Positions 136 through 5,590 of a DNA stretch of 5,590 nt are shown in pieces. How positions within the stretch are numbered: position 1 is the stretch's first letter; each line of letters starts with the position of its first letter. Source of the DNA: Actinomycetes bacterium (GTDB lineage Bacteria > Actinomycetota > Acidimicrobiia > Acidimicrobiales > Palsa-688); assembly GCA_021821705.1 (NCBI GenBank), contig JAKACE010000148.1, positions 1 to 5,590 on the forward strand, in the 5' to 3' direction. The notes below the pieces were generated by a model, which did not search any database, was not told the origin of the DNA, and saw nothing but the letters and a program-made list of their open reading frames with translations. The translations under genes were made by a program, and so were the position numbers.

Positions 136-1590
136 ATGATCTTGAACTTCTTCTCGTCTCGCGGTTGGCAGCAGTGGGACGTCGCCTGCCAGCCGTTGAT
201 CCCCGAGGGGATGCCGGTGCTGGTCGACGACGACCTCGTCTTCGAGGACGGCCCGACGGCCCCGCGGGCCACAGTGGCGGTGAACCGCTGGCTGCGGGAG
301 CTGCCGAGCAGCGGGGCACCGGCGAAGAGCTCTTGGGCGAACTATGCCCGAGCTGTCAAGGCATGGGCAGAGTTCCTGGCCGGCCGCGGAGTCGAGTTGT
401 TCGGCCCCCGGGAGCGCCTGAAGCAGGCGCTTGGCAGCTATGCCGAGCACCGCTCGGCCGGGCCGGTGGAAAAGCGGTTCGCGCCCAGCACCTGGAACCA
501 GCACATGAGCGTGCTGTCGTTGTTCTACCGCTGGGCAGTGGCCGAAGGCCATGCGAGCGCGGAGCCGTTCACTTACAAGACTGCGAGGGCGCTCTTCGAC
601 GGCACCGGCCGGGACGTGCGGGTGAACCTGGCTATGCGCCGGGCCCCCAAGCCGCACGTCACGGTCAAGTACCTGGAGCCTGACTTCGCGCGGCTGTTCC
701 TGGCCGGCCTCAAGGGCCTCGCCCCTGATGGCAGCCAGGACACCGGCTTCCGGGGCCGGGAACTGGCCCGTAACGCGGCGGTGGGCGGGCTCGCGCTGGC
801 TACGGGGCTCCGTTTGCAGGAGTTCAGCTACTTGTTGGCCTACGAGGTCCCTGCGCTGCCGGCGCGCCCGACGGCGGTGCCGCTCCCCTTCCCGGTCCCT
901 GAGGGGGTGGCCAAGGGCCGCAAGCACCGCACCACGTGGGTCTCTTACGAGGCGCTGGTCGCCGTCCACCAGTACCTCGAGCTGGAGCGGGCAGCAGCGG
1001 TGGCCGGCTCGGGGTGGCGGCCGCCCGAGCGGTGGGGCCCCGGGCTCGTGGTGAGCGACGCCGATGCCGCCGGCGGGAGGGTCAACGGGAGCCGCCGGCC
1101 CTGGGGCTCGCTGGCCCCGGCCGAGCGCCGACGCCTGGTCGCCCCCGGTGGCGGCTCGTGCCTGTTGGCGGTCACCTCGACGGGGGCGCCCTTCACGGCG
1201 TGGCCGAGGGTGTTCGAGCGCACTTCGGACCGCGTCCGGGCCCGGTTCGAGCCGCGCTTCCCCCACGTAAATGCCCACCGGCTCCGGCACAGCTTTGCCA
1301 TGGCTACATTGGAGTTTTTGGTGGCTGGCCACTACCGCCAGGCCGCCCGCCTGGCTGCCGAAGCCGGCGGGGACGCCGCCTTGGCGCTGTACTTGACCAA
1401 GGCCGACCCGCTTTTGGTGCTTCGCGACCTGCTTGGGCATTCGAGCGTGCTCACGACTGAGAAGTACCTGCGTCGGCTCGACACGGCCCGCATCTACAGG
1501 GAGGCTTACGAGGCGGCGGGCTTCGGGCTGGGCGGGAAGGCCGAGGCAAGACCCGGAGCACGCACCGAGCTCACCGAGGTGGCCACCTAG
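136..1590 (+). CDS. Tyrosine recombinase/integrase with complete catalytic set
   Basis: This 484-residue protein is a site-specific DNA recombinase of the phage integrase/XerD class, which cuts and rejoins DNA through a 3'-phosphotyrosine intermediate. Residues about 44-150 form the helical core-binding (SAM-like) domain. The catalytic domain shows Arg box I as TGLRLQEF (R226), a beta-hairpin lysine in AKGRKHR (K260 or K263), box II as HRLRHS (H381, R384), and LLGHSSVLTTEKYLR (H435, nucleophile Y444). All catalytic residues are present. R226 to H381 is 155 residues, against 96 in XerD, and R384 to H435 is 51 against 23, so two extra segments are inserted. I chose ATG 136 because the extension back to TTG 31 has non-coding codon use; GTG 109 and TTG 97 are alternatives, and no start has a good Shine-Dalgarno. 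It is followed by a structured gap and a coupled operon of two further recombinase-like genes. It is most likely the active integrase of a mobile element; target site unknown. Confidence 0.93.
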   Translation: MILNFFSSRGWQQWDVACQPLIPEGMPVLVDDDLVFEDGPTAPRATVAVNRWLRELPSSGAPAKSSWANYARAVKAWAEFLAGRGVELFGPRERLKQALGSYAEHRSAGPVEKRFAPSTWNQHMSVLSLFYRWAVAEGHASAEPFTYKTARALFDGTGRDVRVNLAMRRAPKPHVTVKYLEPDFARLFLAGLKGLAPDGSQDTGFRGRELARNAAVGGLALATGLRLQEFSYLLAYEVPALPARPTAVPLPFPVPEGVAKGRKHRTTWVSYEALVAVHQYLELERAAAVAGSGWRPPERWGPGLVVSDADAAGGRVNGSRRPWGSLAPAERRRLVAPGGGSCLLAVTSTGAPFTAWPRVFERTSDRVRARFEPRFPHVNAHRLRHSFAMATLEFLVAGHYRQAARLAAEAGGDAALALYLTKADPLLVLRDLLGHSSVLTTEKYLRRLDTARIYREAYEAAGFGLGGKAEARPGARTELTEVAT

Positions 1591-1610
1591 CAACCTCGGC
1601 GCCCTGGTCC

Positions 1611-1642
1611 CGGCCTGAGGCTGCTCATGGCAGCCCCGGCCG
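1611..1642 (+). terminator. Hairpin after the first recombinase, possible terminator
   Basis: About 20 bases after the stop codon, GGCTGC (1619-1624) pairs with GCAGCC (1630-1635) around a five-base loop, TCATG. An outer stem, CGGCC (1611-1615) with GGCCG (1638-1642), extends it across a small internal loop. There is no T tract, so it is not a classical intrinsic terminator. The downstream arm can pair differently: CAGCCC at 1631-1636 also matches GGGCTG at 1649-1654, so two exclusive folds are possible. GC-rich DNA makes chance stems common, so function is uncertain. Confidence 0.35.
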
Positions 1643-1673
1643 AGCGCAGGGCTGTCCCGGCACCCACCAGTCG

Positions 1674-1736
1674 GGCGGTCTGACCGACGGGGCCTGCGCC
1701 ACAGGCCCCGCCTGACAGGTCCGACCGCCGGTCAGG
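1674..1736 (+). promoter_or_regulatory. Nested inverted repeats, operator- or RNA-like
   Basis: The core is a perfect 9-bp stem, CGGGGCCTG (1688-1696) with CAGGCCCCG (1702-1710), around a five-base loop. It is flanked by two near-identical palindromic decamers, GGTCTGACCG (1677-1686) and GGTCCGACCG (1718-1727), 41 bases apart and differing at one base. An outer pair, GGCGGTC (1674-1680) with GACCGCC (1723-1729), can enclose the core stem and leave an internal loop of 7 and 12 bases. CCTGAC (1711-1716) with GTCAGG (1731-1736) is another option. The arrangement suits a dimeric repressor or recombinase binding region, a terminator without a T tract, or a structured RNA. The sequence cannot decide between these. 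Confidence 0.45.
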
Positions 1737-1756
1737 TGCGTGCCATCTCTCAACAC

Positions 1757-1765
1757 AGGAAGGGG
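1757..1765 (+). promoter_or_regulatory. Ribosome binding site of the IS110-like gene
   Basis: AGGAAGGGG lies directly ahead of two in-frame ATG codons, at 1766 and 1772. AGGA (1757-1760) is five bases from ATG 1766, and the AAGGGG core (1760-1765) is six bases from ATG 1772. Either start is possible and they differ by only two residues. The site rules against the GTG at 1736, which lies inside the inverted repeats and has no such signal. It also supports the gene being truly translated. Confidence 0.7.
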
Positions 1766-2524
1766 ATGGCAATGCCCATCGTAGAAAGCGCCGCCGTGAC
1801 CGGCGGAGCGGAGGCACACGCCGACAGGTACACGGCCGCAGCACTGGACGACGTCGGTTGCCTGTTGGGGACCGAAGAGTTCCCTTGCAGCCCCGCTGGT
1901 TGCCAGGCGCTCCTGGACTGGCTGGCCGGTTTCGGCCCGGTGAAGCAGGTCGGGGTCGAGCCGGCCGCCCCCTCGGCCAGCTTGTTGGCCCTCCACCTCC
2001 AAGAGGCCGGCATCGACGTCGTGGAGGTCGGCCGAGGAGCGCTCGGCGGCCCCGAGGCGCTCGCCGCCGACGCGCCGAGCGTGGCCCGCGCCGCACGTTC
2101 CGGCGAGGGACGGCCGCTGCCGGCCGGTCGCGCCACGCTCGCCCAGGCGGCTGGCGCCTTGTTGGTGGCAAGGCGCTCTGCCGAGCGCGACCACGGGGCG
2201 GCCGTCGATGCTCTCCGGGCTTTGCTGGCCTCCGCTCCCGGCGACCTCTGGCTCGAGCTGTCCGCCTGCCCGGCGGCAGCGCTGGTCGAGAGGGCAGCGG
2301 CGCTGCGGCCCCTCCCCGCTCACCCGGTGGGCTACGCGACCCGTGTCGCCCTGGCTGAGCTCGGGCGCCGGGCTACCTGGCTCTCCGAACAGGCTGCTCG
2401 CCTGGACGAGCTGCTGGTCCCCTTGGCGGCCGCTCATGCGGCTGGCTTGCTCGGGACCTTCGGGCCGGGGCCCGAGGGGGCCGAGCTGATGGTCGCTGGT
2501 GCCGACGAAGAGGCGGGCGCCTGA
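1766..2524 (+). CDS. Degenerate IS110-type DEDD transposase N-terminal protein
   Basis: This 252-residue protein reads as the N-terminal, RuvC-like DEDD half of an IS110-family transposase. In that family four acidic residues in this domain and a serine in the C-terminal domain carry out recombination. The family pattern is visible throughout: a short first strand, then TAAALDDVGCLLGT (23-36), SPAGCQALLDWL (42-53), VGVE (62-65), LQEAGIDVVEV (78-88), a helical stretch ALRALLASAP (149-158), and LLGTFGPGPEGAELMVAG (228-245), which matches the start of the helix-hairpin-helix region. The first catalytic Asp aligns with Glu16; the Glu is kept (E65), but the usual Gly-Thr-Gly-Ser-Tyr after it is lost; the third acidic position aligns with Leu99; the last is kept as D102. 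The protein ends where the C-terminal serine domain should begin, so it should not recombine DNA. Its frame is intact, it has a good ribosome binding site, and it shares one base with the next gene (TGATG). A domesticated accessory or DNA/RNA-binding factor is my inference; a recently truncated transposase is the alternative. Confidence 0.72.
   Translation: MAMPIVESAAVTGGAEAHADRYTAAALDDVGCLLGTEEFPCSPAGCQALLDWLAGFGPVKQVGVEPAAPSASLLALHLQEAGIDVVEVGRGALGGPEALAADAPSVARAARSGEGRPLPAGRATLAQAAGALLVARRSAERDHGAAVDALRALLASAPGDLWLELSACPAAALVERAAALRPLPAHPVGYATRVALAELGRRATWLSEQAARLDELLVPLAAAHAAGLLGTFGPGPEGAELMVAGADEEAGA
2508..2513 (+). promoter_or_regulatory. Ribosome binding site of the second recombinase
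   Basis: AAGAGG sits ten bases before ATG 2524, inside the end of the preceding gene. It is a moderate signal. Together with the one-base TGATG stop/start overlap it suggests that translation is at least partly coupled to the IS110-like gene. Confidence 0.45.
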
Positions 2525-4242
2525 TGCCGGCGAGCCTCGTCGAGCGGCCGCTGGGTATCCGTTGCACCTTCAGTGACGGCAGCAGGGCCGAGCTCGCCCT
2601 GCGCGGCCTCGACGGCAGCCCGCTGGCACGTGACCTGCTTGTCGGCCTGGCCAACCTGGTCCACCCGCACGGCAGCGTGGACGCGGCGTCCACCGCTGCC
2701 CAGTACGTGCGCGCCGCCCGGGACATGGTGACGAGCTTCGTAGGACGCGGGTTCACCGGCGGTGCAGGTGAGCTCGGCCGGGCCCGGTTGGCCGAGTACT
2801 GGATGGGCACGACTGGGCCACGGGAGGCGTGCACCCGGCGGATGCTGGTCGGCTTCGACGCGGCGACCGGCGGCCTGGCCCGAGACGTGCGCGAGCTGGC
2901 CGAGGGGCGGGCCTTCAACCCGCAGCCGTTCCGCCGGGCGCTGCCGCCCTACCCCGAAGACGAGTGGGCCCGGCTGGCCGGGGTGTGCACGGCGGTCGTC
3001 GAGGAGTCCTTCGCTGCCCACCGGGAGGCCCTGGCCGGCGCGGCCCGTGGCCAGGACCCAGCTGTCGATGGCTGGAGCCTGGACAACTTGCGGTGGCTGC
3101 TTTCGCGCCGGGGCCCTTCCACGGTGGTCGACGTCGGTGCCCATCTCGGTGTCTCTGCACAGACCGTCCGCAAGAGAGGCGGGATAGCCCAGGCAACCAC
3201 CGGGCTGTTCCCGCACCTGGAGGTGACGGTGGCCTACCTGCTCGCGTTCGGGGCCTGCTCCGGTGTTGTGCCCGACGGCATCGGTGACCTGGTCGTAGGC
3301 GATATCGACTGGGCTGGGGACGCCTCGGTCCTCCTCGGCTACATGAAAGGCCGCACGGGGCCCGAGAGCGTCACTTTGGGGCGCCGGGCGGTGCGGCTGC
3401 TCGAGCAGTGGCTGTCGCACTCGGCGCTGCTGCGGAGCTTCGCTGGCCCGACGGTGCGCCGCCAACTGTGGTTGGGGGTCGAGCGCGAAGGCTCGGCCCG
3501 GATCTCGGCTGGGCCGGTCCACCGCAACGTCGTCCGCCGATGGGCCGACAGCCACGAGCTGCTTCGCGGCGAGGACGGCCAGCGCATCGAGATCCACCGG
3601 CACCGCATCCGCACCACCCACCTTTCCCTGCGGGACAGACGTGCCTGGGCCGGCAACCCCCGCGCCAGGGTCGACCCGAACCACACCCCGGCCGTGGAGG
3701 GCGACCACTACCTGGCGGCCACGACGCCGGCCCAACGCCAGGCGGTCGAGGCGATCGTCGAGGACGCCCAGCACGACCTCCTCCGCCGTGCGCAGAAGCC
3801 CGTCGTCCTCACCGGGAACGGCACGCCAGCGGTGGGCGCCCTGCCGGAGCAGCTCGGCGAGCTCGGCCTCGACGAAGCCGCGCTCGGAGAGCTCCTCGGC
3901 GGCGAGCGGGACGTGTTCGCCGCTGCCTGCGCTGACCAGCTGTCGGGCCTGCACGGGCGGGCCGGCCGGCCCTGCCCGGCCCGGCCGTGGGTGTGCCTGG
4001 CCTGCCCTCTGGCCGTCTTCGCCCCCCGCCACGCCACGAACCTGCTGCGGCTGAGGGCGTTCTTCGCCCGGCAGTGGCGGGCCATGCCCGCCGGCCAGTT
4101 CATGGCCGTGTTCGGCCCCTACGCGCACCGGCTCGGCCAGGTCCTCGAGCGCTACCCCCCAGCCGTACTGACCACGGCCGCCTCGGCGGTCGCCGACAGC
4201 GACGACGAGCTCCCGCTCCGCCCCGAGGAGCTCAGCTCATGA
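2524..4242 (+). CDS. Tyrosine-recombinase-like protein lacking catalytic Arg I
   Basis: This 572-residue protein belongs to the tyrosine recombinase superfamily by its catalytic-domain layout. Residues about 45-125 look like the N-terminal helical DNA-binding domain. The box I region reads FGACSGVVPDGIGDL (242-256) and aligns without gaps to SGMRASELMEL of the downstream recombinase, so the essential arginine is Val249. Other elements remain: a hairpin lysine in YMKGRTG (K275), HRIRTT (H360, R363), and a degenerate final box with H387 and Y396 nine residues apart, the same spacing as in the first recombinase. After the catalytic domain comes a region of about 170 residues with C469, H477, C484, C491, C494 and H503, a possible zinc site, then a helical stretch (LLRLRAFFARQW). 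Loss of Arg I normally abolishes or greatly lowers cleavage, so it may be a structural or regulatory subunit of a mixed recombinase complex. It overlaps the preceding gene by one base and the next by four (ATGA). Large two-recombinase systems such as Tn554 are the nearest known analogy. Confidence 0.8.
   Translation: MPASLVERPLGIRCTFSDGSRAELALRGLDGSPLARDLLVGLANLVHPHGSVDAASTAAQYVRAARDMVTSFVGRGFTGGAGELGRARLAEYWMGTTGPREACTRRMLVGFDAATGGLARDVRELAEGRAFNPQPFRRALPPYPEDEWARLAGVCTAVVEESFAAHREALAGAARGQDPAVDGWSLDNLRWLLSRRGPSTVVDVGAHLGVSAQTVRKRGGIAQATTGLFPHLEVTVAYLLAFGACSGVVPDGIGDLVVGDIDWAGDASVLLGYMKGRTGPESVTLGRRAVRLLEQWLSHSALLRSFAGPTVRRQLWLGVEREGSARISAGPVHRNVVRRWADSHELLRGEDGQRIEIHRHRIRTTHLSLRDRRAWAGNPRARVDPNHTPAVEGDHYLAATTPAQRQAVEAIVEDAQHDLLRRAQKPVVLTGNGTPAVGALPEQLGELGLDEAALGELLGGERDVFAAACADQLSGLHGRAGRPCPARPWVCLACPLAVFAPRHATNLLRLRAFFARQWRAMPAGQFMAVFGPYAHRLGQVLERYPPAVLTTAASAVADSDDELPLRPEELSS
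4225..4230 (+). promoter_or_regulatory. Ribosome binding site of the third recombinase
   Basis: GAGGAG lies eight bases before ATG 4239, inside the last codons of the preceding gene. It is a strong Shine-Dalgarno match at good spacing. It fixes the start of the downstream gene, which overlaps the preceding stop as ATGA, a typical translational coupling junction. Confidence 0.75.
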
Positions 4243-5590
4243 CCGACCTCGCCCCCTGGGGCTGGGCCGGCGAGCAGCCGTCGCCCTTCGCCGGTGCCGA
4301 CATCTGTGCCCAAGCGGGCTTCCAACTGCCGCCAGGGGCGCTGCGCCCGAGGTTCGAAGACGACGCCTGGGACTTCACCGAAGTGGTCGGCCTGCCCCAG
4401 GACATGCCCCCGTCGCTTCGTCGCTTCGACTTCGCCTCTATTGCCAACCCCGCCTGGCGGGTGGTCGCCAAGGAGCTGGTCGTGGCGCTGCTCGCCCCCC
4501 GCCACCCAGCAGTGGCAGTGCTGCCTCGCGCCCTGCGCACCCCTCTCCACCTCCGCACCTGTGCGCTGCGCCTGGCCGAGCTCAGATCCTGGTTCGACTG
4601 GCTGACCGGCCAAGGCGTGAGCACCTTGGCCGACGTGGCCGACAGCCACTGCCGGGCCTACCTGGCCGGGCGCCGCCAAGTACTCGACGCCGCCGGCCAG
4701 GTCATCGGTGAGCGCAGCCCGAGCGTCCGGCGCTCGGCCGCCCAGGTCGTGGTCGACCTGGCCAACTACCGGGAGCTGTTCAGCACTGACTCGCTCGACC
4801 CTCGCCTGCGGCCGTGGGCGGGCGCGTCGCCTACAGCAGTCGCCGAGATGCCCAACGGCCGGGGCCAGAACAAGACCGCCCCCCTCGACGACGCCGTGCT
4901 GCGGCCCATGCTGGCAGCCGCCCTCTACCTCACTGCCACCATCGGCCCGCACGCGGTCACCGTCTCCCACCAGGCCAGGCAGTCCACCCTTGCGCACCGT
5001 CGTCTCCCCCAAGTGGCCCAGCCGGGCACCAACACCTTCGAGACCGTCCTGGAACGTCAACGCCACGACCACGTTCCGCTGGTTGCCCTCCCCGACGCCC
5101 TCGTCCGGGACCGGCTGGCAAAGGGCTGGGCGCCCGACGACCCGTTGCTGGCGGTCAGCCTGGACGCCCTGGCCCACGAGGCTGGCTTTCGGCAGTTCTA
5201 CCGGGGGTGGCTGGCCTCGCTGCGGCCGATGATCGAGCTCACCCTGGCCCAGGTGGGCTCCGCCAAACCTTTCGGCCGTGACGCCCAGGCGGTCCCCTCC
5301 GCCAACGGCGAGGGACAGCTGGCGTGGACGCTGCCCCTCCACGCCAGCGAAGTCATCGCCCTGGCCGGCGTGGTGCGCACCGCCTGCATCGTCGTCACGG
5401 CCGCCTTGTCCGGCATGCGGGCGAGCGAGCTGATGGAGCTCACGGTCGGCTGCCGGTGCCCACCCGAGGCCCTCAGCCCCGGCCTGGCCCGCTACCGCTT
5501 GGCCAGCAAGGTCGTAAAGGGCCAGCCCCTCGGTGGCGTCCCCGACGAGTGGGTCGTGATCGAGCCGGTCCACCACGCCGTCGGCCTCGC
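4239..5590 (+). CDS. Large tyrosine recombinase, 3' end beyond window
   Basis: The frame is open from ATG 4239 to the window end and encodes at least 450 residues with no stop. Residues 390-400 read LSGMRASELME, the Arg box I of tyrosine recombinases (R394), followed by a beta hairpin RLASKVVKGQPLGG with the likely catalytic lysine at K424 or K427. Box II (HxxR), the final His and the nucleophilic Tyr should lie beyond 5590 and cannot be checked. About 390 residues precede box I, far more than the roughly 150 of XerD, so this is one of the large recombinases with an extended N-terminal region; residues about 95-180 look like a helical core-binding domain. The catalytic Arg missing from the preceding protein is present here, so this one may supply activity to a shared complex. 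The ATGA overlap and GAGGAG ribosome binding site indicate coupled expression. The family call is firm; function beyond DNA recombination is inferred. Confidence 0.85.
   Translation, partial: MTDLAPWGWAGEQPSPFAGADICAQAGFQLPPGALRPRFEDDAWDFTEVVGLPQDMPPSLRRFDFASIANPAWRVVAKELVVALLAPRHPAVAVLPRALRTPLHLRTCALRLAELRSWFDWLTGQGVSTLADVADSHCRAYLAGRRQVLDAAGQVIGERSPSVRRSAAQVVVDLANYRELFSTDSLDPRLRPWAGASPTAVAEMPNGRGQNKTAPLDDAVLRPMLAAALYLTATIGPHAVTVSHQARQSTLAHRRLPQVAQPGTNTFETVLERQRHDHVPLVALPDALVRDRLAKGWAPDDPLLAVSLDALAHEAGFRQFYRGWLASLRPMIELTLAQVGSAKPFGRDAQAVPSANGEGQLAWTLPLHASEVIALAGVVRTACIVVTAALSGMRASELMELTVGCRCPPEALSPGLARYRLASKVVKGQPLGGVPDEWVVIEPVHHAVGL

What the first reader, a model, noticed from the sequence alone, without database searches (positions are those of the whole stretch)
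1766..2524. Catalytically degraded IS110-like protein inside a tyrosine-recombinase operon
The protein follows the IS110 DEDD-domain layout from its first strand to the start of the helix-hairpin-helix region. However, the first Asp is Glu16, the third acidic position is Leu99, and the whole serine domain is missing. Despite this the frame is intact, it has a good ribosome binding site, and its stop codon overlaps the start of the next recombinase. That combination suggests an RuvC-fold protein recruited as an accessory of a tyrosine-recombinase system, which mixes two unrelated recombination chemistries. I know of no described system with this composition, but I cannot search for one.
Basis: partly seen in the sequence, partly recalled or inferred. 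Interest (0 to 1): 0.78.

Follow-up and report, generated by a model that had tools for sequence, protein, structure and literature searches.

The report
Captured dead IS110 in integrase operon
The front half of an IS110 jumping gene, with the stretch that encodes a guide RNA in its relatives but with key residues of its cutting site and its second catalytic domain missing, sits between two genes of what is likely another mobile element's integrase operon, belongs to a clade of equally shortened genes, and likely controls how much of the downstream integrases is made.

The parts
136..1590 (+). ginA-like tyrosine recombinase (gene A)
   Evidence: Phage_int_SAM_1 E 1e-5 and XerC profile E 9e-13, the latter far below its cut-off (scanned from 139, one codon short); 74% identical to a Streptomyces plasmid integrase in the same layout
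1591..1765 (+). non-coding leader derived from an IS110 left end (bridge-RNA region)
   Evidence: blastn to the left end of full-length IS110 L053: 74% over 132 nt, E 1e-14 against the fetched loci only; covariance model of 13 IS110 left ends hits 1598-1744 with 46.8 bits, rough E 1.8e-7
1601..1652 (+). first predicted hairpin arm, target-binding-loop-like by position, shortened and poorly conserved
   Evidence: fold; this part of the leader is 52% identical to G021 over 65 columns
1659..1744 (+). second predicted hairpin arm, donor-binding-loop-like by position, conserved
   Evidence: fold (whole leader z -5.3); the part holding this arm and the ribosome-binding site is 81% identical to G021 over 109 columns
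1741..1771 (+). predicted hairpin that covers the ribosome-binding site of B
   Evidence: 10 predicted pairs in the window; similar hairpins in G021 and in 4 of 7 IS110 left ends folded (L053, L057, L060, L062; not clearly L002, L021, L067)
1766..2524 (+). gene B: truncated IS110 recombinase, RuvC-like plus coiled-coil, DEDD incomplete, no serine domain; probable real start 1772
2524..4242 (+). gene C, ginB-like, probably a tyrosine recombinase; its start overlaps B's stop as TGATG
   Evidence: no significant profile hit and no PDB sequence hit; low-confidence model (pLDDT 64.9) whose best Foldseek rows are XerH, Cre and lambda integrase, best E 0.03; 1025 homologues at E <= 1e-40 among 7991 scored candidates
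4239..5590 (+). gene D, ginC-like recombinase, runs off the contig
   Evidence: 57% identical to the third gene of the Streptomyces operon; its Nocardia counterpart has a weak Phage_integrase match, E 0.005

Best explanation
The locus holds what is likely a captured 5' half of an IS110 element, made of the bridge-RNA region of its left end and a truncated recombinase with an incomplete DEDD site and no serine domain, lodged between the first two genes of what is likely a GInt-type three-integrase operon, where it likely works as a non-cutting leader cistron that gates and couples translation of the downstream recombinases. Shown here: the homology of leader and protein to IS110, the loss of both catalytic centres, the single clade of short proteins, and the position in two loci. 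Inferred: insertion at the 3' end of gene A; ribosomes that end at B's TGATG restart on gene C, as they would from gene A in B-less operons; B's own start is held by a hairpin inherited from IS110, so output of genes C and D passes through an IS110-type gate. The protein may also bind the retained second arm through its RuvC and coiled-coil parts; that step is the least certain.
For: B is IS110 by profile and predicted fold. Short clade of 11, support 100/99, nearest full-length row P0019 at 91/87; 0 of 11 keep DEDD, 22 of 23 comparison rows do. Leader homologous to an IS110 left end and found by a model built without window and G021 (window E 1.8e-7, G021 E 7e-6; no hit up to E 1 in the B-less loci L048, L049, L051, L070; L071 12.8 bits, E 0.44). 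In 10 of 10 B-less loci the stop of A and the start of C overlap or lie within 1 nt, 8 of 10 exactly as TGATG (in L076 the annotated start of C lies 39 nt further); in both B-bearing loci B's stop makes TGATG with C. Leader differences window vs G021 22 of 114, against 172 of 400 fourfold sites of A and C, Fisher p 3e-6. Omega of B 0.157, 2dlnL 37 against 1. In the short clade the D3/D4 stretch is nearly free (mean identity 0.30 vs 0.86) while helix 43-66 (0.76 vs 0.68) and coiled-coil helix 2 (0.71 vs 0.69) are kept. All four gin genes are reported essential for GInt movement (PMC5385486, passages), so an insert should still let the downstream genes be made.
Against: Only two B-bearing loci are at hand as DNA, so leader conservation rests on one pair. 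G021's B is 78 residues shorter in frame, lacking the D3/D4 loop, the last RuvC helix and most of coiled-coil helix 1, as decay would give. B's omega exceeds A's (0.092) and C's (0.046), with a wide bootstrap range (0.02-0.34) and saturated synonymous sites. In the tree of gene C the four B-bearing rows are not one group: two changes are needed, P0136 falling beside the B-less G008 and G031 (80/90), so B was lost, moved or gained more than once in these operons although the B proteins are one clade. Covariation support is weak: covariation term +0.45 kcal/mol, 8 of 27 pairs with double changes; pair-keeping test P 0.07 (G021) and 0.02 (L053). G021's leader folds only modestly better than shuffles (z -2.0, 6 of 200). 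In IS621 the conserved A and G bases of the bridge RNA are read by the Tnp domain (PMC11208158, passages), which B lacks. The relay alone does not explain why helix 43-66 and coiled-coil helix 2 are kept. No expression data exist.
Confidence: 0.45

Rival explanations
1. B is a protein accessory of the tyrosine recombinases: a dead RuvC fold plus coiled-coil that serves as an RNA-bound or protein-bound scaffold in the integrase complex, as the inactive RuvC-like part of Nop5 recruits fibrillarin in box C/D RNPs.
Confidence: 0.2
2. B is a decaying IS110 remnant without function; the frame is still open because of high GC content or weak, fading constraint.
For: Fast change and varied catalytic replacements; large in-frame deletion in G021; NG86 dN/dS 0.46; B faster than A and C.
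Against: 11 divergent members with open frames in one clade; omega = 1 rejected; segment-specific conservation; second leader arm slower than fourfold sites. The pairwise omega could still average over an early period of constraint.
Confidence: 0.15
3. B is a dominant-negative inhibitor of IS110 transposition: it keeps the dimerising coiled-coil and poisons active IS110 recombinases, protecting the element from IS110 insertion. (Truncated transposases that act as inhibitors, such as Tn5 Inh, are recalled, not searched here.)
For: The coiled-coil domain dimerises in IS621 (PMC11208158, passages); B's coiled-coil helix 2 is as conserved in the short clade as in the comparison rows and stays close to them (between-group identity 0.60 against 0.51 overall); full-length relatives occur in genomes of the same family.
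Against: The window's own genome (61% complete) gave no second match to B up to E 10, so no resident element to inhibit was seen; G021's copy lost most of helix 1.
Confidence: 0.12

Closest known systems
IS110 family (IS621, ISCro4; bridge-RNA recombinases)
   Same: RuvC-like and coiled-coil fold, sequence profile, and the left-end RNA region directly upstream of the gene
   Different: DEDD incomplete, whole Tnp/serine domain absent, first RNA arm shortened, the gene is followed directly by another element's gene instead of a right end, and it is embedded in an integrase operon
GInt genomic islands (ginABCD; PMC5385486, passages)
   Same: three consecutive, closely spaced integrase-type genes; in six annotated plasmid relatives they are followed by a small gene, with weak coiled-coil matches in the two scanned
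   Different: an IS110 half-element stands between the first and second gene; identity to the published GinABCD was not tested
Nop-domain RNPs: TIGR-Tas and box C/D Nop5 (PMC12045711, passages)
   Same: RuvC fold joined to a Nop-like coiled-coil, with an inactive RuvC in some members
   Different: B lacks the C-terminal part of the RNA-binding domain, and no TIGR-type array is among the repeats listed for the window
Domesticated transposon nucleases and truncated transposase inhibitors (TldR-type TnpB relatives, Tn5 Inh; recalled, not searched)
   Same: loss of catalysis with keeping of part of the protein
   Different: other protein families; no regulatory target is known for B

Membership tests
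IS110 family recombinase | complete DEDD active site | tested here: not met
   E16, E65, L99, D102 in the window; 0 of 11 short homologues complete
IS110 family recombinase | Tnp domain with catalytic serine | tested here: not met
   no PF02371 match; the NF033542 match stops at position 235 of 343 and the protein ends shortly after
IS110 family recombinase | RuvC-like domain plus coiled-coil fold | tested here: met
IS110 family element | bridge RNA encoded in the non-coding left end | tested here: inconclusive
   the leader is homologous to IS110 left ends and fits their covariance model, but the first arm is shortened, no guide-to-DNA match was shown for it, and transcription is unknown
IS110 family element | defined ends and own mobility | not tested
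   ends were defined only for a contrasting element in G033
GInt (ginABCD) | three consecutive tyrosine recombinase genes | tested here: inconclusive
   gene A meets an integrase profile; C and D have no significant match in the window; Foldseek for C favours tyrosine recombinases only at E 0.03 on a low-confidence model
GInt (ginABCD) | small fourth gene ginD | not testable with these tools
   the contig ends inside gene D; six annotated plasmid relatives have a small gene in that place
GInt (ginABCD) | homology to published GinABCD, and flanking att repeats | not tested
   the published proteins were not fetched; the contig is too short for ends
TIGR-Tas | tandem interspaced guide RNA array beside the gene | tested here: not met
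   no such array among the repeats listed for the window (20 of 40 direct families shown); B matches no TIGR-Tas profile up to E 5

The most novel reading that the evidence does not exclude
A nuclease-dead IS110 RNP, made of the short RuvC and coiled-coil protein and the retained second arm of the bridge RNA, has been recruited to steer the three tyrosine integrases of a GInt-type element, which would be the first RNA-guided tyrosine recombinase system.
Probability: 0.05. Interest if true: 0.95.

Novelty: new variant of a known kind. Interest (0 to 1): 0.6.

Why it matters
IS110 recombinases were recently shown to be guided by bridge RNAs. A single clade of IS110 halves that lost both catalytic centres, and that in the two loci seen in DNA kept the left-end RNA region and an open, coupled frame inside another operon, would be a case of IS110 exaptation; I found none described in the open library searched. 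It gives a testable example of what IS110 RNA and protein do when cutting is no longer possible, and of two unrelated recombination systems wired into what is predicted to be one transcript.

Tried and rejected
One-off insertion with frameshifted relatives: rejected by the 11-member clade, although G021 carries a large internal in-frame deletion.

Chance resemblance of the leader to IS110: rejected. Rfam has no family for it; the only window matches up to E 1 were two miRNA models far below their gathering scores, one of them over 1661-1742.

Donor-guide match: I looked for short matches between the second arms and the right or left flanks of ten full-length loci. Matches in the expected stretch appear in L063 and L013, and L005 shares CATAGGAGC with its own right end by eye; L060 and L002 gave none and the others scattered 8- to 9-mers. 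Naming the arms target-loop and donor-loop therefore rests mainly on position. The window has no right end to test.

Internal promoter or terminator in 1400-2600: none found by a sigma-70-type scan, which does not cover other promoter types.

Searches without a relative of use: genome contigs, viral contigs, phages. Plasmids gave 1127 records for B, all below 60% identity and, in the 20 rows listed, IS110 transposases or unannotated. Gene C was found in 4 of 32 genomes of the family, 5 of 397 and 3 of 397 in two largely overlapping draws of the order and 1 of 395 in the class, the window itself; in the last three kinds of draw only up to 3 candidates a genome were scored.

Rows chosen by hand: the tree used 11 short and 23 comparison proteins out of the 120 listed of 677 hits and the 18; 22 of the 23 carry PF02371, P0047 (288 aa) does not. 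P0001 (99% identical to the window) was left out; P0016 stands for G021's B, to which it is nearly identical. Segment identities leave out P0016 and four distant comparison rows (10 and 19 rows used). Model R1 used 13 left ends; window, G021 and eight others (L006, L008, L010-L013, L056, L072) were left out. In one search the column labelled E2 was residue 64 by mistake; the right one (65) is. Gene A was scanned without its first codon.

Full report
WHAT IS THERE. The window is one whole contig (C125) of a 522-contig genome of estimated 61% completeness. It reads, all on the plus strand: gene A (136-1590), a 175-nt gap, gene B (1766-2524, the finding), gene C (2524-4242) and gene D (4239 to the contig end). 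A meets an integrase profile; C and D have no significant profile match in Pfam or NCBIfam. A is 74% and D 57% identical to the matching genes of an operon on a Streptomyces chartreusis plasmid, whose C homologue is 60% identical. A low-confidence model of C (pLDDT 64.9) has XerH, Cre and lambda integrase as its best, weak Foldseek matches (E 0.03 and above).

GENE B IS IS110. NF033542 (IS110 transposase) matches at E 1e-9 over residues 16-241, ending at profile position 235 of 343. A profile from 18 sequences (window included) finds ISCro4 and IS621 in the PDB at E 3e-10 and 1e-8. The predicted structure matches these two best. In IS621 the RuvC domain is 1-122, the coiled-coil 123-188 and the Tnp domain 189-326, with DEDD at D11, E60, D102, D105 and the serine at 241 (PMC11208158, passages). 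B keeps the first two domains; its four acidic positions read E16, E65, L99, D102.

B IS A CLADE, NOT A ONE-OFF. Homology searches gave short proteins of about 250 residues and full-length proteins of about 345. In a tree of 34 chosen rows the 11 short ones (one of them 174 residues) form one clade at 100/99, with the intact P0019 next at 91/87 (P0019 has both IS110 domains). D1 is kept in 2 of 11, E2 in 4 of 11, D3 in 2 of 11, D4 in 10 of 11, and all four in none; 22 of 23 comparison rows keep all four. Within the short clade the D3/D4 stretch is nearly free (mean identity 0.30 against 0.86), while helix 43-66 and coiled-coil helix 2 are at least as conserved as in the comparison rows.

CONTEXT. 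In the window's family 4 of 32 genomes hold gene C. Two have B between A and C (window and G021), two do not (G008, G031). In a draw of 397 genomes of the order gene C was found in 5. The other seven short proteins could not be placed. In 10 B-less loci (G008, G031, G039 and seven plasmids) the stop of A and the start of C overlap or lie within 1 nt, 8 of 10 as TGATG; with B, B's stop makes TGATG with C. In one of them (L076) the annotated start of C lies further downstream. B's last codons may be the old end of gene A; this is inference. In a tree of gene C the four rows with B need two changes: window, G021 and P0134 lie in one part, P0136 beside the B-less G008 and G031 (80/90; 19 of the 28 rows have unknown B state). 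With one B clade, this means loss or transfer of B in some operons.

THE OPERON TYPE. Three consecutive, closely spaced integrase-type genes followed by a small gene, as in six annotated plasmids, is the layout of ginABCD in GInt islands, where all four genes were reported essential for excision and integration (PMC5385486, passages). I did not compare sequences with the published GinABCD.

THE LEADER IS IS110 TOO. The gap 1591-1765 matches the left end of the full-length IS110 in L053 (74% over 132 nt, E 1e-14 against the fetched loci) and G021's gap (80% over 130 nt). In G033 two identical copies and a third near-identical one of a related element define ends that enclose the same two-arm region (L005 1236-2543). 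A covariance model from 13 full-length IS110 left ends, without window or G021, finds window 1598-1744 (46.8 bits, rough E 1.8e-7) and G021 (38.3 bits, E 7e-6). Opposite-strand rows reach 19.4 bits; the only row outside IS110 and B loci is L071 at 12.8 bits; L048, L049, L051 and L070 give none up to E 1. The first arm is shortened to about 52 nt; the second is kept. Most IS110-group bridge RNAs are placed in this left end (PMC11208160, passages).

SELECTION. Between window and G021 the second arm and ribosome-binding region differ at 22 of 114 sites, against 172 of 400 fourfold sites in A and C (p 3e-6); the first-arm part is 52% identical over 65 columns. Codon models give omega 0.092 (A), 0.157 (B), 0.046 (C); for B omega = 1 is rejected (2dlnL 37), bootstrap range 0.02-0.34. 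NG86 gives 0.20, 0.46, 0.20. B is thus constrained but less than its neighbours. Covariation evidence for the arms is weak, and G021's leader folds only modestly better than shuffles (z -2.0) while the window's does so strongly (z -5.3).

HOW IT MOST LIKELY WORKS. In B-less operons translation of C is probably coupled to A by TGATG. The insert separates A and C by 713 nt in G021 and 933 nt in the window. B's frame and its terminal TGATG would restore coupling, so ribosomes would traverse B to reach C. B's start is predicted to lie in a hairpin (1741-1771) that resembles those of G021 and of 4 of 7 IS110 left ends folded. The simplest reading is a gated relay that sets the output of C and D. 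This accounts for the open frame and the conserved second arm and ribosome-binding region; it does not by itself account for the kept coiled-coil helix 2 and helix 43-66, which point to some remaining protein function: binding the leader, scaffolding the integrases, or inhibiting IS110. All of these steps are inferred.

NOVELTY. Literature searches for IS110 with bridge RNA, domestication, exaptation, catalytic inactivity and accessory roles, for seekRNA, for recombinase trios and for ginABCD listed no such arrangement by title and abstract; I saw passages of five papers (PMC11208158, PMC11208160, PMC12045711, PMC5385486, PMC11187229), not whole texts. Most subscription papers and all preprints are outside the library.

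Noticed in passing
L053 2276-2450 and 1039-1209; L002 2274-2451 and 1034-1199; also L056, L059, L060, L061, L064, L067: Full-length IS110 elements related to B have bridge-RNA-like structures on both sides of the transposase gene (8 of 24 loci scanned). Two long non-coding regions per element are on record for 26 IS in PMC11187229 (passage), but two structured RNAs in one clade deserve a look.
   Followed up: partly
L005, L020, L028 (genome G033): Three near-identical IS110 copies with defined ends; the second RNA arm shares CATAGGAGC with the element's own right end.
   Followed up: partly
L051 (G039), 3216-4626: Of the ginA-like gene of this B-less operon only the 3' part is seen in the locus, beside a second, different tyrosine recombinase gene.
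   Followed up: no
L048 (G008), 150-1456: The ginC-like gene of this B-less operon matches in two pieces in different frames, so it looks frameshifted.
   Followed up: no
L050/L024 (G021): B is 78 residues shorter in frame, lacking the D3/D4 loop, the last RuvC helix and most of coiled-coil helix 1, yet keeps its start, second helix and TGATG.
   Followed up: yes
window 1766-1774: Two in-frame ATG codons; the second (1772) has the better spacing from the ribosome-binding site and matches the start of several relatives.
   Followed up: partly
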